From Nautiliaceae bacterium (lineage in GTDB: Bacteria; Campylobacterota; Campylobacteria; Campylobacterales; Nautiliaceae): 43,637 bases of DNA. Below the pieces are notes generated by a model. The model worked only from the letters and a program-made list of their open reading frames with translations, ran no database searches and was not told the origin of the DNA. The position numbers and the translations under genes were made by a program. The stretch's first letter is position 1, and each line of letters begins with the position of its first letter. Below are positions 1 through 18,216 of this stretch, piece by piece. Location: contig JAMOTL010000035.1 of the NCBI GenBank assembly GCA_027062285.1, positions 1 to 43,637 of the forward strand. The letters are read 5' to 3'.

Positions 1-39
1 TTTTAAAGAAGCTTAAAAAATGATATAATTTCACTCTCG

Positions 40-127
<88 letters not shown>

Positions 128-143
128 TTACTTCAAAAACTCT

Positions 144-223
144 GTAATTTCGGTATCTTTTAAAAATTAAAGAGGTAAGTGTCAGTCGTTTTTGGCGGAT
201 TTTTACTGACAATTTAACTGACA
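144..223 (+). other. Candidate integrase arm-type sites, left end
   Basis: GTAATTTCGGTAT (144-156) and two ACTGACA copies spaced 12 bp apart (205-211, 217-223) recur in the same strand orientation inside the right end (5775-5787, and 5740-5746 with 5752-5758). Sharing two separate motifs between both ends fits integrase or excisionase arm sites. An inverted GTCAGT at 181-186 may be another half-site. The role is inferred. Confidence 0.6.
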
Positions 224-232
224 GTTTTTAAA

Positions 233-464
233 TAATACCAAAACACAAAATAACTTTTACATTTACCTTTTCTTGGTACTGACTAAATACGCTCAACAAG
301 AGTGCAATTTTTTTAACACTTCGAAAAAGCTAAAAAGTGCGAACCGCTGCGCTTTTGAGCGCACTTTTTTAACGCTTTTTCTCCGTTAAAATTTGCAATT
401 GTTTCGCTTTATTTAGTCAGTATCCTTTTGTCTAATGTTTAATTTATTTTTAGGATTGGTATTA
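233..464. repeat. Large nested imperfect palindrome
   Basis: The outer arms are TAATACCAA (233-241) and TTGGTATTA (456-464). Inner arms are TACTGACTAAATA (277-289) and TATTTAGTCAGTA (410-422). A central stem AAAAAGTGCG pairs with CGCACTTTTT around 333-370. Between these the two halves align imperfectly, so almost the whole 230 bp can fold on itself. No gene is seen here. It could be a MITE-like insertion, a structured RNA, or a recombination or replication site of the element. Confidence 0.65.
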
Positions 465-476
465 CCTTTATTTAAA

Positions 477-779
477 TCATTTTTCTAATGCAAAACAATG
501 TAATTGATAAATAGCGATAATTCCCAATGCTAAAAGAATAATAAAATTAAATATCAAATTCACAGAACATAAAAACCATTCAAGCATATTTTGATAATTA
601 TTGAAAATTTTTAATTTTTTTACTTTTATAGATTTTAATTCATCTTGTTCGGTAAATTCATTTGCTTTGTGGTATTCTTCTGTTTTTTCATACTCTTTAT
701 TATTTTCATGGATATCATTTTCTATAAACCCAAAATAATCGCCCTTTATATTTTTGGTTATGAAATTTAATATTGTCAT
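477..779 (-). CDS. Small membrane-anchored hypothetical protein
   Basis: This is a 100-residue ORF that I do not recognise. Its N-terminal two-thirds is hydrophilic and rich in E, K and N; one hydrophobic segment (about residues 70-93, LFSVNLIF-like to AIYQLHC) would anchor the C-terminus in a membrane. No convincing ribosome binding site precedes the ATG. A second ORF in another frame (715-858) overlaps the start and carries a lipobox-like FFISSC, so the true start or frame is uncertain and the locus may be a decayed gene. It lies downstream of the Sel1-repeat gene on the same strand, in the cargo part of the element. Confidence 0.4.
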   Translation of the reverse strand: MTILNFITKNIKGDYFGFIENDIHENNKEYEKTEEYHKANEFTEQDELKSIKVKKLKIFNNYQNMLEWFLCSVNLIFNFIILLALGIIAIYQLHCFALEK

Positions 780-875
780 TTTTATTAATGGATACTTTAA
801 AATATCTATTACAGCTAGAAATAAAAAATATACTAAATAAAGACATACTAAAAAACATAAAAACTCTAATATGAT

Positions 876-1019
876 TTATTCATAATTGGGAGGTGTTTTA
901 CTAAATACTAAATTAAAAATAATTCCCTTTGGTATAACTTTAAGATAAACTATAAGCAAAGAAATCAAAGAAAGAGTAAAAAGTTTTTTCTTTATTTTAA
1001 CAGTTTCTTCAGAAAACAT
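876..1019 (-). CDS. 47-residue hydrophobic peptide coupled to the Sel1 gene
   Basis: This small ORF starts MFSEETVKIKKKLF and ends KTPPNYE. Its ATG overlaps the stop codon of the Sel1-repeat gene (TGATG, 1017-1021), which suggests translational coupling. A hydrophobic stretch at about residues 13-38 looks like a single membrane span. I do not recognise a family. It may be an accessory of the secreted Sel1 protein or simply a relic. Confidence 0.45.
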   Translation of the reverse strand: MFSEETVKIKKKLFTLSLISLLIVYLKVIPKGIIFNLVFSKTPPNYE

Positions 1020-2068
1020 CAATATCCCATCCTCTTTAATTTTGCATACTTATCACATCCAAATTGTAATCCCATATCACAAGCTTTTCCATAATAGTAT
1101 AGGGCTTTTTGATAATCAAGTTTTACTCCTCTGCCATATTCATAATTAAGTCCAAGACTAGCGCACCCTCTAGCATTTCCACCGTCACAGGATTTTTTGA
1201 AAAGTTTAGTTGCTATATAATAATCTTGTCTTACTCCTTGTCCTTTTTCATACATCCATCCAAGATTATTGCACCCCAAAGCATTTCCACCATCACATGC
1301 TTTTTTGTAAAGTTCTGCGGCTTTGAAGTAGTTTTGTTTTACTCCATCTCCTTCATCATACATCCATCCAAGATTATTGCACCCCAAAGCATTTCCACCA
1401 TCACATGCTTTTTTGTAAAGTTCTGCGGCTTTGAAATAATTTTGTTTTACTCCATCTCCTTTTTCATACATCACTCCAAGATTATTGCACCCCAAAGCAT
1501 TTCCACCATCACATGCTTTTTTGTAAAGTTCTGCGGCTTTGAAGTAGTTTTGTTTTACTCCCAGTCCTTCATCATACATCCATCCAAGATTATAGCACCC
1601 CGAAACATTTCCACCATCACATGCTTTTTTGTAAAGTTTTGCGGCTTTGAAGTAGTTTTGTTTTACTCCATCTCCTTTTTTATACATCACTCCAAGATTA
1701 TAGCACCCCAAAGCATTTCCACCATCACATGCTTTTTTGTAAAGTTCTGCGGCTTTGAAGTAGTTTTGTTTTACTCCATCTCCTTTTTTATACATCACTC
1801 CAAGATTATTGCACCCCAAAGCATTTCCACCATCACATGCTTTTTTGTAAAGTTCTGCGGCTTTGAAGTAGTTTTGTTTTACTCCCAGTCCTTCATCATA
1901 CATCCATCCAAGATTATAGCACCCCAAAGCATTTCCACCATCACATGCTTTTTTGAAAAGTTTTGCTGCTTTTTGATAATTTTTGCTCTTAATTGCTTGT
2001 AAACCTTCATTAACATATCCTGCAAAAGAAAATGTAATAACCATTAAAAATAAAATTAACTTTTTCAT
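1019..2068 (-). CDS. Secreted Sel1-repeat (Hcp-like) cysteine-rich protein
   Basis: The 349-residue protein has a signal peptide (MKKLILFLMVITFSFA) followed by about eight 36-residue Sel1-like repeats of the form ACDGGNALGCYNLGWMY..G.GVKQNYFKAAELYKK. Each repeat carries a pair of cysteines eight residues apart, as in Helicobacter cysteine-rich proteins (Hcp), where they form intra-repeat disulphides; this implies an oxidising periplasmic or extracellular location. Sel1 and TPR solenoids bind proteins or peptidoglycan fragments; the ligand here is unknown. A good AAGGAG precedes the ATG. The central repeats are nearly identical in DNA, suggesting recent expansion or gene conversion. It is cargo of the tRNA-Ser element. 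Confidence 0.9.
   Translation of the reverse strand: MKKLILFLMVITFSFAGYVNEGLQAIKSKNYQKAAKLFKKACDGGNALGCYNLGWMYDEGLGVKQNYFKAAELYKKACDGGNALGCNNLGVMYKKGDGVKQNYFKAAELYKKACDGGNALGCYNLGVMYKKGDGVKQNYFKAAKLYKKACDGGNVSGCYNLGWMYDEGLGVKQNYFKAAELYKKACDGGNALGCNNLGVMYEKGDGVKQNYFKAAELYKKACDGGNALGCNNLGWMYDEGDGVKQNYFKAAELYKKACDGGNALGCNNLGWMYEKGQGVRQDYYIATKLFKKSCDGGNARGCASLGLNYEYGRGVKLDYQKALYYYGKACDMGLQFGCDKYAKLKRMGY
1160..1980. repeat. 108-bp tandem repeats within the Sel1 gene
   Basis: The marker gcatttccaccatcac recurs with a strict 108-bp period at about 1173, 1281, 1389, 1497, 1605, 1713, 1821 and 1929. Each copy encodes one 36-residue Sel1 repeat. Central copies differ at only a few bases, so copy number could change by slippage or recombination without breaking the frame. 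Confidence 0.9.
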
Positions 2069-2169
2069 TGTTCTCCTTTTTAAAACAAGTTTTTAATACT
2101 TTCTTTAATTTTTTCCTACAAACTTTTAGAGCTAAAATCCATCCGCACCTACAATTAATGGTATTTCTA

Positions 2170-2250
2170 CCTCACACACTCTTTATAATACCTGTCACAC
2201 CTAAACTCAATAAGACAATCTGTATCGAATTCACATCCATCGTCCATTAA
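2170..2250 (-). pseudogene. Fragment of a small cysteine-rich protein
   Basis: The minus strand encodes MDDGCEFDTDCLIEFRCDRYYKECVR and then a stop. The CxFDTDC..C...C pattern resembles the short disulphide-rich knots found in secreted proteins. It has no start context or signal peptide and open frame continues only about 12 codons upstream. I read it as a remnant just upstream of the Sel1 gene. The rest of 2069-2378 shows only AT-rich sequence and the start signals of the two flanking genes. Confidence 0.25.
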
Positions 2251-2378
2251 AATAGAAGCAATAACCCTTTTTATCCTATCCCTTTAAACAATAACAAGTT
2301 TTTCAATTATACACTCTCGTTCTCCAAATTTCAAGGGAAAAAGTTTATTTGTTGAAATAATTATCCCATAGGATGTAG

Positions 2379-2630
2379 ATGAATAACGATATTAAAGAGT
2401 TTTATAAAATAATTTCTTCCAATGTTAAGAAAAAAAGAATTGAAAAAGGCTTTTCCCAGCTTGATTTGGCTTTTGAAATCGGTATTAAATCAGTAGCTTT
2501 TTATTCTAACTGTGAAAATTTAAGATACGGCAAGCATTTTAATTTGGAACATTTATATAAACTCTCAAATGCTCTTAATATAAATATATGTGAATTTTTT
2601 GAAGGTATTGACTCTATTAAAAAATCATAA
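2379..2630 (+). CDS. XRE-family transcriptional regulator
   Basis: The 83-residue protein is essentially one lambda-repressor-type HTH domain: KKKRIEKGFSQLDLAFEIG (about residues 17-35) forms helices 1-2 and the start of the recognition turn, and LEHLYKLSNALNINICEFF is the typical helix 4-5 ending. There is no effector domain. AGGATG lies before the ATG. The gene is convergent with the relaxase gene and their 3' ends overlap by 6 bp. It probably controls element genes such as transfer or excision functions, but no operator could be assigned. Confidence 0.8.
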   Translation: MNNDIKEFYKIISSNVKKKRIEKGFSQLDLAFEIGIKSVAFYSNCENLRYGKHFNLEHLYKLSNALNINICEFFEGIDSIKKS

Positions 2631-3920
2631 ATCTCCAATATTTTTACTGCTTTTTATACGTTTTTTTGAAATATGCGTTAATGTTTTGTTTATTTCAATT
2701 TTTTCAGTATTTTTACTTGATTCTTTTATTTCCATTTCCTCATAATCTCTTTCAACTTTAAGTTTTGTATTTTCATCTTCTAAATCTTTGATTTTTGTTT
2801 TTAAAATTTGATTTTTTTCTTTTTCCTGTTTGAGTTCCTTTTGAAGCCGTTTGACTTTGAAAACGGCATCAATGAATTCTTTGCCGTAGTCTTTTTTGGT
2901 TGATGTTGTATATTTGATTATCTTTTTAACCGTAGAGATTTTAATTATTTTTTCTTTTTTAATCAATCCTGTTTCGGTTGAGTATTTTTCAATAAGCTCA
3001 AGCTGTCTTTTTCGGATTTTTTCTTTGATAGAGTTTTCAAATTCGTTTAGCATATGGTTTATGTCTTTAAGGCTTGAAACTTTTAAGAGTTTTTTTATTT
3101 GCGAGAGGGTTTGATAGTCTTCTTTGGTAAAAATTTTATATTGTCTGTTTTCTTTCTGAAGCTTATTATAATCTTTCATTTGATTTTTTAATTTTTGAAT
3201 TCTTTTTTCAAGTCCTTGTTTGGTAAGTTCGAGTTTTCTGATTTGCGCGTTTTTAAGCAATAAATCTTTTTTAAGTTTTTTGTTTTCTTCATCTTTTTGT
3301 TGCAGCTCATTTTTAAGTTTAGCAACTTCATCGTTTTTAAGTTTCATGGCTCTTTTATATTCGTAGGTGTCAAGCCTTTTTGGTCTTTTTTTCTTTTCTT
3401 GAGTATAGTTTATGCCTCTTGGCATATTTAATATTTTGGCTATTTCATCCTGAAGGGTGATTAAATCTTTTCTGTCCATTTTTCTTCTGACACTAATCCC
3501 TTCGTTGTCTATTCCCATAAAAAGTATATGTGCGTGATAGTTAATAATTTTGTTTCCGTTTTCGTCAATGTGTCCTTCGTCTTTATGGATTGCTAATTGG
3601 ATTACTTTGGTGTTGTATCTTTTCTCAATAAATCTGACTATTTTTTTCAAATCCTCTTTTGTATGTTTTTCATTAAGATTGATTATTGCACTGAAAAGCG
3701 TTATCGTTTTTTTATGCAGTTTTTTACCGGTTCTTTTCCGGTAAAGCTCGGTTCTTTTTTTCAGTTCCGAAAAATATAATTCCATTGCTTCGTTTGCTTT
3801 TATATTGCAGTAATTGTCTTTTGTGGAAAAAATAGAGTTTTTGGTTTTCTTTTCCCTGCTGTTGTGATAGAATTCTCCTATATTTGCTTTTTCTATATGG
3901 ATTGAGGATTTCCTAATCAT
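2625..3920 (-). CDS. MobV/Pre-type relaxase (plasmid mobilization)
   Basis: The N-terminal domain resembles MobV/Pre relaxases. The key metal-binding region HKDEGHIDENG..INYHAHI (about residues 115-135) matches their HxDExxxHxH motif III. RSSIHIEKANIG at the start fits motif I. From about residue 190 to the end it is a lysine/glutamate-rich coiled coil, as in pMV158 MobM. I chose the ATG at 3920 (MIRKSSIH) because AAGGAG sits six bases before it; an ATG at 3965 lacks a comparable signal. The product should nick oriT and pilot the excised element into a recipient using a helper conjugation system. An 18-bp palindrome 50 bp upstream is the candidate oriT. Confidence 0.8.
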   Translation of the reverse strand: MIRKSSIHIEKANIGEFYHNSREKKTKNSIFSTKDNYCNIKANEAMELYFSELKKRTELYRKRTGKKLHKKTITLFSAIINLNEKHTKEDLKKIVRFIEKRYNTKVIQLAIHKDEGHIDENGNKIINYHAHILFMGIDNEGISVRRKMDRKDLITLQDEIAKILNMPRGINYTQEKKKRPKRLDTYEYKRAMKLKNDEVAKLKNELQQKDEENKKLKKDLLLKNAQIRKLELTKQGLEKRIQKLKNQMKDYNKLQKENRQYKIFTKEDYQTLSQIKKLLKVSSLKDINHMLNEFENSIKEKIRKRQLELIEKYSTETGLIKKEKIIKISTVKKIIKYTTSTKKDYGKEFIDAVFKVKRLQKELKQEKEKNQILKTKIKDLEDENTKLKVERDYEEMEIKESSKNTEKIEINKTLTHISKKRIKSSKNIGDL

Positions 3921-3969
3921 GCGTAACTCCTTCTTTGCACGAAGCAATTTGAGCTTGCCGAACAATTGC

Positions 3970-3987
3970 GTAGTGCGTACGCACTAC
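3970..3987. other. Candidate oriT palindrome
   Basis: gtagtgcgtacgcactac is a perfect 18-bp palindrome about 50 bp upstream of the relaxase start. MobV origins of the pMV158/pUB110 kind sit in the same place and carry a TAGTGNGTTA-like nick core; TAGTGCGTA here matches most of it. Activity is inferred. Confidence 0.6.
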
Positions 3988-4097
3988 ACGTTTTCGTAAA
4001 CTCAAACGCTTGTGCTTTTTTATATATTTATATGAGTTTGAATTTTTTTATTGGATTGCAAGAAAAAAGAAGAAATCTGGAAAGATAAAATTGAAAG

Positions 4098-4277
4098 TTA
4101 GTTGATTGAAGAAGATGTTTGAGGCTGATTGTTAGAAAGTGAGAGAAGTCTGTTTAATTCAGATTGAGTAATATTGATTTGCTCTTTTATCTTTTTTATT
4201 TTAGATTCAAGCAGGGCTTCTTCTTTTTGCAGTTTTTCTAATTTGTTGATTAACTGTTTTATTTTTTTGTAATCCAT
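4098..4277 (-). CDS. Small coiled-coil protein, possible mobilization accessory
   Basis: The 59-residue product MDYKKIKQLINKLEKLQ... is almost entirely a heptad-rich coiled coil (about residues 3-45), with a polar tail. I chose the ATG at 4277 because AAGGAG lies just upstream; the longer frame to 4400 would run through the divergent promoter. It is encoded upstream of the relaxase on the same strand, with the oriT-like palindrome between them, the position of MobC-like accessory proteins. No family is recognised. Confidence 0.6.
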   Translation of the reverse strand: MDYKKIKQLINKLEKLQKEEALLESKIKKIKEQINITQSELNRLLSLSNNQPQTSSSIN

Positions 4278-4295
4278 GGGAGAACTCCTTTTGTG

Positions 4296-4394
4296 CTTAA
4301 TTATAATAAAGAAATTGTCTTTGAATAAAAAATAAAAAAAATTTAGAAATTTTTTCAATTTCGGGTTTTTTTTAAATTCTTTATTATAATTAAG
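4296..4394. promoter_or_regulatory. Mirror-image divergent promoters
   Basis: The 18-bp sequence cttaattataataaagaa (4296-4313) recurs inverted at 4377-4394. Each copy contains TATAAT reading outward, one toward the coiled-coil and relaxase genes, the other toward the excisionase-like gene. Identical -10 regions facing both ways would let one regulator bind both and co-ordinate transfer with excision. Confidence 0.65.
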
Positions 4395-4413
4395 TAACAA
4401 AAAGGATAAGCCT

Positions 4414-4629
4414 ATGAAGCCTTTTTGTTACTCTACATCTAAAATGGCAAACTATCTCGGTGTAAGCAAAGATTTTCTTTTAAAAAACAAAAACAGACTT
4501 TTCAAAAAAGGAATCCACTATTATGAGCCTTACGGAATAAATAAAACGTTATGGAATGTTTCCCAAATGGAAAAATGGATAACGGGAAAAGAAGAAAATC
4601 CTTTTAAAGAGATTTTAAATGAGCTATAA
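4414..4629 (+). CDS. Excisionase-like HTH protein
   Basis: The 71-residue protein has a winged-helix/AlpA-like DNA-binding fold: TSKMANYLGVSKDFLLKNKNRLFKKGIHYY (about residues 8-37) followed by LWNVSQMEKWITG, the tryptophan-containing wing and helix seen in many excisionases. It is the gene immediately before the integrase, and AAAGGA precedes the ATG. Probable role: directing excision of the tRNA-Ser element and perhaps repressing its own promoter. Assignment is by fold and position. Confidence 0.7.
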   Translation: MKPFCYSTSKMANYLGVSKDFLLKNKNRLFKKGIHYYEPYGINKTLWNVSQMEKWITGKEENPFKEILNEL

Positions 4630-4646
4630 TTGTATTACGATTGGCA

Positions 4647-4666
4647 CTTACCTCACGGGAGGTAAG
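4647..4666 (+). promoter_or_regulatory. Hairpin sequestering the integrase ribosome binding site
   Basis: CTTACCTC (4647-4654) and GAGGTAAG (4659-4666) form a perfect 8-bp stem with a 4-base loop. The GGGAGG ribosome binding site of the integrase lies in the loop and 3' arm, two bases before the ATG at 4669. Folding would hide the site and lower integrase translation unless the hairpin is opened, for example by ribosomes finishing the upstream gene. Confidence 0.6.
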
Positions 4667-4668
4667 AG

Positions 4669-5778
4669 ATGATAGAAAATCCAAAAGTCAGTTTGTTTAA
4701 TAGAAAAGGGAAACTATACGTTCAGTATTACGTAAACGGCAGGTGTGTTCAAAAGTCACTTAAAAGGGATTACACCAAAGAAAATATTAAACTTGCTAAA
4801 AAGTATGTTATCCCTGAAATTGAAAGAAAAATACTTCTCGGTGAGATTCAGGATAACAGGGTTAAACCTAAAGAGTTTGAGTATTACGCCACTATATATT
4901 TAAGACAAAAAGAAAATTTAAAAAGCTACTATGAATACGAAAATATTGTGGTAAACCAATTTTTTCCGCTTTTTAAACACAAAAAGGTAAATGAAATCAC
5001 TAAGGGCGAAATAAAAGAGTGGATAGATAACAGGCTTAAAGAGGTAACGCCGAAAAGGTTAAGGAATATCCTTAATATATTAATCGCCATTTTAGACATA
5101 GCCGTAGAATACGAGCATATACAAATCAATCCTGCTAAAAACATTAAACTGCCTTCACACGTTAAAGTAAGGGAAATGAAACCTTTTAGTGAAAAAGAGG
5201 TTAAACTCTTAATAAACAATGCTCAAGGTCAGTTCAAATGTTATTTAGCAATAGCCTTTTATACGGGAATGCGTCCGGGTGAGATTATAGCCCTTACGAT
5301 AAGCGATATTAATCTTAACGAAATGTATATCAATGTAAACAAAAGAATAAGAAAAGGCGAAACCGATACACCCAAAACAAAAAACTCTATAAGAAAAGTC
5401 CCTGTATTTCAAAACCTTAAACCGTATCTTGAAGAGCTGATTAAAAAAGCGAAAAAGAAAAAAACATTTAATCTTTTTACAACCAAAACGGGTAAAAGGT
5501 ATTATTCGTCGGACAAACTTCATCCTCAGTGGTATGCTTTGCTTGAAAAGTGTAATATAGAAAAGAGAGTGATGTATAACACAAGACACACGTTTGCCAC
5601 ACTTGCCATAAAAAGAGGCGTTCCTATTTTCAACGTATCCCAGATACTCGGTCACAGGAACACTCAGGAAACCCTTGAAACTTACGCCAAATTTATCAAC
5701 AACGAACATCTACAGCTTGACAGAAACCTGGAGCTGTTCACTGACAATTCCACTGACAGTTTGTCGAAAAAGGCGTAA
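4669..5778 (+). CDS. Tyrosine recombinase (integrase) of the tRNA-Ser element
   Basis: The 369-residue protein has an N-terminal arm-binding domain (KGKLYVQYYVNGRCVQKSL), a SAM-like core-binding domain (about 65-160) and a C-terminal catalytic domain. Visible catalytic residues are the first Arg in TGMRPGEIIAL, then HxxR as YNTRHTFATLA, LGHRN with the second His, and the Tyr of ETLETYAKF. It should integrate the element into the 3' end of tRNA-Ser. Its last codons overlap the right-end ACTGACA arm repeats, so the gene end and the att region are fused. Translation may be restrained by the hairpin just upstream. Confidence 0.93.
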   Translation: MIENPKVSLFNRKGKLYVQYYVNGRCVQKSLKRDYTKENIKLAKKYVIPEIERKILLGEIQDNRVKPKEFEYYATIYLRQKENLKSYYEYENIVVNQFFPLFKHKKVNEITKGEIKEWIDNRLKEVTPKRLRNILNILIAILDIAVEYEHIQINPAKNIKLPSHVKVREMKPFSEKEVKLLINNAQGQFKCYLAIAFYTGMRPGEIIALTISDINLNEMYINVNKRIRKGETDTPKTKNSIRKVPVFQNLKPYLEELIKKAKKKKTFNLFTTKTGKRYYSSDKLHPQWYALLEKCNIEKRVMYNTRHTFATLAIKRGVPIFNVSQILGHRNTQETLETYAKFINNEHLQLDRNLELFTDNSTDSLSKKA

Positions 5779-5787
5779 TTTCGGTAT
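5740..5787 (+). other. Candidate integrase arm-type sites, right end
   Basis: ACTGACA occurs at 5740-5746 and 5752-5758 with the same 12-bp spacing as at 205 and 217, and GTAATTTCGGTAT occurs at 5775-5787 as at 144-156. The ACTGACA pair lies inside the integrase codons for TDNSTDS. Confidence 0.6.
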
Positions 5788-5797
5788 TGTCAACATG

Positions 5798-5814
5798 TCC
5801 CGCCCTCTCCGCCA
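5798..5814 (+). repeat. Attachment site, right end of the tRNA-Ser element
   Basis: Exact 17-bp copy of the tRNA-Ser 3' end, including CCA, 20 bp after the integrase stop codon. It marks the boundary between element and chromosome. Confidence 0.93.
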
Positions 5815-8994: not shown

Positions 8995-10086
8995 ATGGCT
9001 ATAAAAGTAAGCGATTATAAAGATATTGGACTACCGAATATTAAACAACACAAAAAAGATAAATTAAAATTTTTGATTCAGTTTAAACAAGATGGTAAAA
9101 AGGTTAGGAAAGTGATAACCCTTAAAGAAAGACCCAATTGGACGCTAAGAGAATATAAAAAAGAGCTTATGAGAATACTTGCCGAACTTAAAAACGACGT
9201 AGAGGCTGGATATAAACAAAATGAGTATATGAAAGTTGATGAATTGTTTGAACTTTTTATGCAAAATAATCCGACAAGTGAAAGCTGGGATAAAAAAAGA
9301 AAGGAAATATATAAAAGATACGCAAAGGATGAAATCGGCTCTAAAAGACTAAAAGACGTCAAACCTTTACATATCGGGAAAATTATATCAAAAATGAGAG
9401 ATAAAGGCTTATCACCTAATACCCAAAATAAAGTGCTGGTTATTTTGCGCCCAATGTTTGAGTTTGCAATTCACAACAAGCTCATAAAAGAAAATCCGGT
9501 AAAAGATATTCACATTAAACAAAAAGACACCAAAAAAATTGTAATAAACGCACAGGAGAAACTAAAAAGAATATATCAGGGTATTATGGAACTATATGCC
9601 GACGACCCTTATTATAGGGCATTTTTCCTTTTTGCACTCAGCGGTAGGAGAAAAAGTGAAATATTACAGCTTAGGTGGGAAAATATAGACCTTGAGAATA
9701 ATTACTATTGGATAGCGGACGCAAAGCCGAATGAAAATCAACGTTACGACCTGCCGCCATTAATCAAAGAGGCTCTGCTTGAACTTGGAGTTAAGCGTAA
9801 AGGCTGGGTATTTTATAGCTTTAATAATCCAGCAGAACATCTTAAAAAGCCTGATAGACAGGTTGATAAATTAAAAGAATATCTAAAAATGCCTGAATTC
9901 TCACTTCATTACTGCCGCCACATATTAGCCTCCGCACTTATAGAAAAAGGGATACCTACATCGATTGTTAGCGGTGTATTAGGACATAAAAACGCAACGA
10001 CTATCAACAGGTATGTAAGTATCAATTACCACACCTCTACTCAAAAAGCAAATCAGGAAATGCTTGAAATAATAGAGCCGAAATAA
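8995..10086 (+). CDS. Tyrosine recombinase (integrase) of the tRNA-Met element
   Basis: The 363-residue integrase has an N-terminal arm-binding region (about 1-60), a core-binding helical domain (about 70-165) and a catalytic domain. The visible catalytic set is SGRRKSEILQLRW (first Arg), FSLHYCRHILAS (HxxR), LGHKNATT (second His) and NRYVSI (Tyr nucleophile). AAGGAG sits six bases before the ATG. It differs from the integrase of the tRNA-Ser element, so the two islands are independent acquisitions. It reads inward from the left attachment site, about 235 bp away. Confidence 0.93.
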   Translation: MAIKVSDYKDIGLPNIKQHKKDKLKFLIQFKQDGKKVRKVITLKERPNWTLREYKKELMRILAELKNDVEAGYKQNEYMKVDELFELFMQNNPTSESWDKKRKEIYKRYAKDEIGSKRLKDVKPLHIGKIISKMRDKGLSPNTQNKVLVILRPMFEFAIHNKLIKENPVKDIHIKQKDTKKIVINAQEKLKRIYQGIMELYADDPYYRAFFLFALSGRRKSEILQLRWENIDLENNYYWIADAKPNENQRYDLPPLIKEALLELGVKRKGWVFYSFNNPAEHLKKPDRQVDKLKEYLKMPEFSLHYCRHILASALIEKGIPTSIVSGVLGHKNATTINRYVSINYHTSTQKANQEMLEIIEPK

Positions 10087-18136: not shown

Positions 18137-18165
18137 TAATGGTAGTGAGGGGGAGACTTGAACTC
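18137..18165. repeat. Attachment site, tRNA-Met end (right att)
   Basis: 29 bp identical to 8732-8760; 26 of them are the 3' end of tRNA-Met including CCA. The tRNA is complete on this side. Confidence 0.94.
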
Positions 18166-18216
18166 CCGACCTCCGGCTTATGAGACCGGCGCTCTAGCCA
18201 GCTGAGCTACCCCACC
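18140..18216 (-). tRNA. tRNA-Met (anticodon CAT)
   Basis: Read on the minus strand, the acceptor GGTGGGG pairs with CCTCACT (two G-U pairs) before A-CCA. The D arm begins TAGCTCAG. The anticodon stem CCGGT/GCCGG encloses CTCATAA, anticodon CAT, and the T arm is GGGAG-TTCAAGT-CTCCC. The first base pair is G-U, not the C-A mismatch of initiator tRNA, so it is an elongator Met tRNA or, less likely, an Ile2 tRNA whose C is modified to lysidine. It is the integration site of the second element. Confidence 0.93.

What the first reader, a model, noticed from the sequence alone, without database searches (positions are those of the whole stretch)
233..464. 230-bp nearly self-complementary region next to the left att site
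Three nested arm pairs (233/456, 277/410, 333/361) and imperfect pairing between them make almost the full segment a palindrome. The TACTGACTAAATA arms contain the ACTGAC core of the putative integrase arm sites. It may be an excision-control structure, a folded single-strand recombination substrate, or a MITE.
Basis: seen in the sequence. Interest (0 to 1): 0.55.

Follow-up and report, generated by a model that had tools for sequence, protein, structure and literature searches.

The report
Transposase-less hairpin repeat inside another repeat
The palindrome beside the integration site is a 150-base mobile hairpin without genes of its own that jumped into a second, older palindromic repeat; its family is spread through vent-dwelling relatives, and no link to the neighbouring integrase was found.

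Summary
The palindrome is real: 0 of 200 shuffles fold as well, as RNA of either strand or as + strand DNA. But it is two nested repeats. The core (275-424, 150 bp) is a miniature inverted-repeat element (MITE). Model R1 finds its family in 19 of 21 genomes of the host's family (E<=0.01) and, divergent relatives included, in 32 of 248 of the order (E<=1e-7). Copies carry 8-bp target duplications: at least 7/8 identical in 15 of 71, against 0.8 in shuffles. One insertion has a clear empty site in the same genus. In the window the duplication has decayed to CTTTTCTT/CTTTTGTC (267-274/425-432). The outer arms (229-274, 425-466) belong to a second palindromic repeat that also occurs without the core.

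The att/integrase reading fails: a sister island with the same att end and arm sites lacks the hairpin, and no integrase relative lies in the 71 copy loci (median flank about 500 bp).

Less ordinary: arms vary yet stay complementary, and an apical cap can be 96% alike where arms are 53-60% alike (one pair of eight). No autonomous partner was found. Most likely a transposase-dependent selfish repeat; a selected RNA or terminator role is unproven.

The parts
275..424 (+). core MITE: 150-bp imperfect hairpin, ends GGTACTGACTAAATAC ... TATTTAGTCAGTATC
   Evidence: model R1 160.9 bits, E 1.3e-28 in the own genome (this copy was among the 24 the model was built from); boundary from the 8-bp duplications and the empty site of another copy
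267..274 (.). left target-site duplication CTTTTCTT
425..432 (.). right target-site duplication, decayed: CTTTTGTC (6/8); CTTTTCTT in L009 and L030
229..274 (+). left part of the outer palindromic repeat (TAAATAATACCAAAACAC...); ends with the left duplication
   Evidence: 89% to the G005-derived query; repeated in G005 and G015
425..466 (+). right part of the outer repeat (...GGATTGGTATTACC); one half of its own small hairpin is missing in the window copy. Sequence match covers 434-466; 425-433 is assigned from the duplication
329..375 (+). apical cap GCTAAAAAGTGC...GCGCACTTTTTTAACGC, the module compared between subfamilies
348..363 (+). terminator-like hairpin followed by CTTTTTTAAC
   Evidence: 2 terminator-like sites in 130-800 against 0.1 in shuffles
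290..304 (+). second, weaker terminator-like hairpin CGCTCAACAAGAGTG followed by CAATTTTTTT
180..223 (.). integrase arm-type repeats (TGTCAGT 180, ACTGACA 205 and 217): part of the integrative island, not of the hairpin; that Int binds them is inferred

Best explanation
Window 275-424 is one copy of a transposase-less MITE family of Campylobacterota. It was inserted by a transposase acting in trans that recognised ends of the type GGnACTGACTAAATRC and duplicated 8 bp of A+T-rich target. Here it landed inside an older palindromic repeat (229-466), and the composite is found at three further loci (L009, L030, L014/L290). It lies in the integrative island beside tRNA-Ser by chance and takes no part in integration or excision. 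Shown: dispersed copies, target duplications, an empty site for another copy, nesting, absence from a sister island's att end. Inferred: the transposase (not found), a cut-and-paste or copy mechanism of DDE type, the order of insertion, and the mainly selfish nature of the element, with incidental effects as a hairpin or terminator in transcripts.
For: Copies: 4 places in the own genome (the C104 and C39 mnmG copies look like one locus in two strains) plus one divergent copy; 22 of 60 related genomes by blastn; 19 of 21 family genomes at E<=0.01, own genome included; 32 of 248 order genomes, 11 of 73 genera, at E<=1e-7. Duplications: 71 copies, mean 8-bp identity 0.528 against 0.378 shuffled (0 of 2000 as high); at least 7/8 in 15 against 0.8 expected (maximum 6); 11 perfect, of which L009/L030 share one composite and L022/L053 share the same octamer, so 9-10 are independent. 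Empty site: G004 AAAAAGTCTTAATTTGGTATAATGG against G000 TTAATTTG-[element]-TTAATTTG; G003, G006 and G014 also lack it there. A related 165-bp family in G058 (44 matches, some partial or reverse) has 7-bp duplications: 0.740 against 0.502, 0 of 1000, in 28 of 29 loci examined. Nesting: L009 and L030 with CTTTTCTT on both sides; outer repeat without the core, e.g. L288. 66 of 71 copies do not overlap a predicted ORF of 70 codons or more by over 60 bp. Sister island without hairpin.
Against: No autonomous element with these ends: 20 regions in G058 (one 2-kb pair of ends, L197, encloses a 4Fe-4S protein gene) and 20 in the host family; no IS1595-type DDE domain in 21 genomes. Other transposase families were not searched. 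56 of 71 copies fall below 7/8, the window copy (6/8) among them. Ends differ between subfamilies, which is odd if one transposase reads them. The outer repeat shows no clear duplication of its own (by eye).
Confidence: 0.9

Rival explanations
1. A selected structured RNA or transcription element (bidirectional terminator, mRNA-stability hairpin) that was spread as a MITE and is now maintained by the host.
For: Covariation on 24 chosen copies: 26 pairs with changes on both sides (shuffled 19.1), 116 such cells (shuffled 48.3), slid controls at most 11 pairs and 26 cells. + strand terminator-like sites in 33 of 71 copies against 5.5 in shuffles, - strand 19 of 71 against 6.0. Copy before uvrA shared by two genomes of one genus: element 140/146 identical, adjacent 60-mers 52/60 and 49/60 (Fisher p 0.0013). 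Cap 96% alike in L139/L129 with arms 60% and 53% alike.
Against: No orientation preference in the 60 copies with both neighbours called: ++ 22, -- 16, -+ 11, +- 11. Nothing over the hairpin reaches an Rfam gathering score (LPR17 14.5 bits against 98; none). Fresh duplications, and absence at the mnmG site in four relatives. In L008 against L132 the arms (0.80, 0.85) are more alike than the cap (0.71). Covariation also arises if each subfamily founder had matching arms, or by template switching between arms.
Confidence: 0.2
2. An excision-control structure or folded single-strand recombination substrate of the adjacent integrative island.
For: It lies next to the left att end and its arms contain ACTGAC, as do the arm-type repeats.
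Against: Sister island L309 has the same att end and arm sites but no hairpin; no R1 hit at E<=0.1 in L306-L309; copies lie at genes such as mnmG, luxS, rplS/groEL and uvrA; no integrase relative in the 71 copy loci (short flanks).
Confidence: 0.02
3. A single 236-bp element rather than two nested ones.
For: The composite occurs at four unrelated loci: window, L009, L030, L014.
Against: The core occurs alone with its own 8-bp duplications; the outer repeat occurs without the core (L288, L278; right part only in L287); nearly the same site holds 82- and 79-bp elements with similar ends in L275 and L282.
Confidence: 0.07

Closest known systems
Correia/NEMIS elements of Neisseria
   Same: about 107-155 bp, long stem-loop, terminal repeats, target duplications (PMC2229807, passages seen)
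   Different: those have TA at the termini; here ends are GGn...nCC with 8-bp duplications; other host; RNase III processing not tested here
ERIC (enterobacteria)
   Same: palindromic intergenic repeat with very variable copy number (PMC10969869, passages seen; PMC2229807)
   Different: listed with TA termini; sequence homology to ERIC was not tested by alignment
YPAL/RU-2 of Yersinia
   Same: 168-bp mobile element with target duplications and no TA termini (PMC2229807, passages seen)
   Different: its duplications vary from 3 to 26 bp; here 8 bp (7 bp in the G058 family)
REP elements (GTAG/CGTC families, also in Sulfurovum)
   Same: palindromic and dispersed (PMC3733652, abstract start and passages seen)
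   Different: REPs are 20-40 bp; the core here is 150 bp with duplicated targets. The outer repeat, about 50 bp in its simplest form, is nearer to that size

Membership tests
bacterial MITE | short (under 300 bp), no coding capacity | tested here: met
   150 bp; no ORF of 60 aa or more overlaps 275-424
bacterial MITE | terminal inverted repeats | tested here: met
   13-nt arms 100% complementary; helix 1 90.4% paired over 24 copies
bacterial MITE | target-site duplication | tested here: met
   family level: 15 of 71 at 7/8 or better against 0.8 in shuffles; the window copy alone has 6/8
bacterial MITE | multiple dispersed copies and an empty site | tested here: met
   empty site for the mnmG copy, not for the window copy
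bacterial MITE | ends shared with an autonomous transposon | tested here: inconclusive
   none found in 20 + 20 regions around listed ends; one transposase family searched genome-wide
MITE of an IS1595-type transposon | DDE_Tnp_IS1595 transposase in host genomes | tested here: not met
   0 of 21 family genomes; control search matched 1 of 14
Correia/ERIC/RUP group | TA dinucleotide at the termini | tested here: not met
   core edges GG..C next to 8-bp duplications; feature from PMC2229807
known structured RNA (Rfam 15) | match at a family's gathering score | tested here: not met
   in window 1-1200 only the tRNA reached it; none in 6 loci with copies
integrase accessory or excision site | conserved in sister islands | tested here: not met
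   absent at the one sister left end that was located, L309; no R1 hit at E<=0.1 in L306-L308 as fetched
integrase accessory or excision site | binds Int or Xis | not testable with these tools
   none
integron attC site | attC core sites and folded-strand recombination by IntI | not tested
   recalled comparison only

The most novel reading that the evidence does not exclude
What is kept across the wider superfamily may be not the ends but the apical cap (CTAAAAA - stem - GCCCTTCGGGTT - stem - TTTTTTTAACG). Closely similar caps sit on elements of different bacterial families whose arms are nearly unrelated, and two such families duplicate 8 and 7 bp of target. The cap would be a portable RNA module, a bidirectional terminator or RNase-resistant tip, carried by different MITE frames under different transposases and selected for its effect on transcripts, as in the conserved copy before uvrA. 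Against it, in the closest pair across families (L008/L132) the arms are more alike than the cap.
Probability: 0.13. Interest if true: 0.65.

Novelty: new member of a known kind. Interest (0 to 1): 0.38.

Why it matters
It gives a clade studied mainly for its vent metabolism a repeat family with defined boundaries and a usable search model, and it removes a false lead on the integrative island. The nesting, and caps shared by elements with different arms, offer a testable case of whether MITE interiors rather than ends are kept by selection. No MITE family of this clade turned up in the library searches (listings only). Passages of PMC2628731 report no typical transposons in Nautilia profundicola and one potential transposase.

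Tried and rejected
att/excision structure: rejected by sister island L309. Single-unit palindrome: rejected by nesting. Duplications directly at CTGAC in the 71 copies: absent at that offset (0.298 against 0.297 shuffled, n=7); found 4 nt further out. The earlier impression that locus-specific flanks pair by compensation (0.577 against 0.391 over 5 nt, 0 of 1000) is mostly explained by the element reaching 4 nt further out than first assumed. Autonomous transposon: none in 20 G058 regions (8 ORFs from 6 of them scanned against Pfam, no transposase) nor in 20 host-family regions (ORFs there not scanned; the list was checked for pairs by eye); IS1595 none. RNAalifold on the 64-copy alignment gave only 4 pairs, since the variable arms are misregistered; the structure used came from single-sequence folds of 24 copies that I chose, so the counts lean towards it. 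Two viral-contig pattern hits are not copies by R1. No match of the element in phage or plasmid records; two Pantoea plasmid hits at E 0.5 for a related copy; no phage match for another; no viral contig with the cap pattern. A 22-mer of the tRNA 3' end with up to 3 mismatches occurs once in the window; the shorter att repeat near 5800 was seen by eye. Rows dropped before counts: L001, L005-L007, L029, L035 (duplicates, tRNA/att-only or very short matches); then L002 (near-identical to L003), L014, L080, L091 (interrupted or poor), hits spanning fewer than about 110 model positions, and two contig-edge copies (L060, L061); 71 remain. One search used 64 of the 71 and one search used 24. In G058, L186 was skipped. 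The 71 include the window copy, members of other families of the order, and orthologous or composite pairs (L004/L011, L009/L030). In one search two of ten planned pairs could not be scored, because the module was not recognised in 3 of 18 representatives.

Full report
Observation. The segment is truly self-complementary. One search finds the arms at 233-263/434-464 and 277-289/410-422, and folding 225-470 gives one hairpin containing the third pair, beyond all 200 shuffles as RNA of either strand and as + strand DNA.

Copies. The own genome has the core at four places; two of them, at mnmG on contigs C39 and C104, look like one locus in two strains of the bin. A covariance model R1, built from 24 chosen copies, finds it in 19 of 21 genomes of the host family, own genome included, at E<=0.01 (reverse-strand rows of the same place occur there) and in 32 of 248 genomes of the order, 11 of 73 genera, at E<=1e-7. 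The weaker hits that I read (G058, G087, G056) are divergent relatives with the same architecture but other arms. An exact-pattern scan of named genomes gave 19 stretches, all from bins labelled Nautiliaceae, Nautiliales or Campylobacterales (the pattern fits 38 of 64 known copies).

Boundaries and mobility. Scanning offsets in 71 copies showed direct repeats just outside GGnACTGAC...GTCAGTnCC. At 8 bp the mean identity is 0.528 against 0.378 in shuffles, 0 of 2000 as high; 15 of 71 copies have at least 7/8, against 0.8 expected and a maximum of 6; 11 are perfect, 9-10 of them independent. The other 56, the window copy with 6/8 among them, are below that mark. At mnmG (named) G004 has the uninterrupted AAAAAGTCTTAATTTGGTATAATGG, where G000 has TTAATTTG on both sides of the element; G003, G006 and G014 also lack the element there. 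A related family in G058, with 44 matches, some partial, has 7-bp duplications: 0.740 against 0.502, 0 of 1000, 28 of 29 loci.

Nesting. In the window the octamers are CTTTTCTT (267-274) and CTTTTGTC (425-432). In L009 and L030 the same composite has CTTTTCTT on both sides. The sequence outside (229-274, 425-466) is itself repeated, with 9 matches in G005 and 17 in G015. In L288 it is a perfect small hairpin without the core, and in L275 and L282 elements of 82 and 79 bp with similar ends sit at nearly the same point. So an older palindrome was probably hit by the core element, and the composite is now found at the window, L009, L030 and L014/L290.

No link to integration. The island is about 128-5814: the tRNA-Ser 3' end recurs as CCCGCCCTCTCCGCCA at 5799-5814 (seen by eye), an integrase lies at 4669-5778, and ACTGACA repeats lie at both ends. 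Sister island L309, at a tRNA-Asp, matches window 99-230 at 92%, including the arm repeats, and loses alignment from window position 224 with no hairpin following. R1 found nothing at E<=0.1 in L306-L309 and one partial weak hit in L310. L309's integrase is 64% identical to the window's, L308 is a short contig, and the left ends of the L306 and L307 islands were not located. A 78% match to window 97-209 in the own genome (L006), beside an integrase fragment, also has no R1 copy on its contig. Among 70 other copy loci, 3 contain a tRNA gene: L022 tRNA-Ser, L026 tRNA-Leu, and L076 tRNA-Ser with the same GGA anticodon as the window's. None of the 71 has a relative of the two window integrases, with a median shorter flank of about 500 bp. 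The shared ACTGAC is best read as coincidence between the MITE's end and the integrase repeats.

Structure and possible function. On 24 copies 86.3% of cells are paired (79.2% shuffled, 36-53% slid), 26 pairs have changes on both sides (19.1 shuffled) and 116 cells do (48.3). Subfamily ends differ yet remain complementary (read by eye). + strand terminator-like sites occur in 33 of 71 copies (5.5 in shuffles) and - strand ones in 19 (6.0) (own criteria). 66 of 71 copies do not overlap a predicted ORF by more than 60 bp, and the 60 with both neighbours called show no orientation preference (simple ORF calls). One orthologous copy before uvrA is more conserved (140/146) than the adjacent 60-mers (52/60, 49/60) (Fisher p 0.0013), a single case. 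The cap is 96% identical between L139 (host family) and L129 (family f10), whose arms are 60% and 53% alike. Other pairs are weaker: L139/L127 0.82 against 0.51 and 0.52; L101/L127 0.72 against 0.44 and 0.56; L008/L123 0.60 against 0.49 and 0.55. L008/L132 is the reverse, cap 0.71 and arms 0.80 and 0.85 (8 pairs scored, 15 of 18 representatives gave a module, and in L127 the match began too early, which lowers its values).

What it most likely is. A transposase-dependent, non-coding MITE nested in another repeat. The transposase is not identified: no inward pair of ends enclosing a transposase was seen in 20 + 20 regions around listed ends, and IS1595-type domains are absent from 21 genomes; ISL3, IS256, IS6 and others were not searched. 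Nothing over the hairpin reaches an Rfam gathering score, and no phage or plasmid record in the collections matches the element.

Literature. Searches of the held library (listings) and passages of PMC2628731, PMC3733652, PMC10969869 and PMC2229807 show bacterial MITEs of the same general kind but none from this clade. Most subscription papers are not held.

Noticed in passing
window 128-5814: Small integrative island: tRNA-Ser 3' end repeated as CCCGCCCTCTCCGCCA at 5799-5814, tyrosine integrase 4669-5778, ACTGACA repeats at both ends; sister islands in G001 and G010, one of them at tRNA-Asp.
   Followed up: partly
window 1019-2068: Sel1-repeat protein encoded by similar (79-81% alike, one 68%) 108-bp tandem DNA repeats inside the island.
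   Followed up: no
window 8995-10086 and 18140-18216: A second tyrosine integrase and a tRNA-Met gene, possibly another integrated element.
   Followed up: no
L007 1501-1545 (own genome C90): A tRNA gene, by its sequence tRNA-Asp, followed by CATTACTTCAAAAACTC, the same sequence as after the window's tRNA-Ser: perhaps a remnant att end of a relative of the island.
   Followed up: no
L006 1501-1612 (own genome C12): Another tRNA-Ser-like 3' end with a 78% match to window 97-209 and an integrase fragment just downstream: probably a decayed island.
   Followed up: no
L004 and L011: Orthologous copy between a promoter-like sequence and the start codon of uvrA in two genomes of the genus, more conserved than its flanks.
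   Followed up: partly
L076 479-641 and 702-789 (G002): A divergent copy lies about 60 bp upstream of a tRNA-Ser (GGA), the same tRNA as in the window but on its other side.
   Followed up: no
G058 (right flanks of L177 and L168): Another repeat containing TTACGCAAAGCTTGAGCA[AG]AGCCCA next to MITE copies.
   Followed up: no
flanks of L043, L058, L067, L071, L072 (G001): Several G001 copies lie in low-complexity stretches of the kind TTCACAAACTCACAATTTCAC.
   Followed up: no
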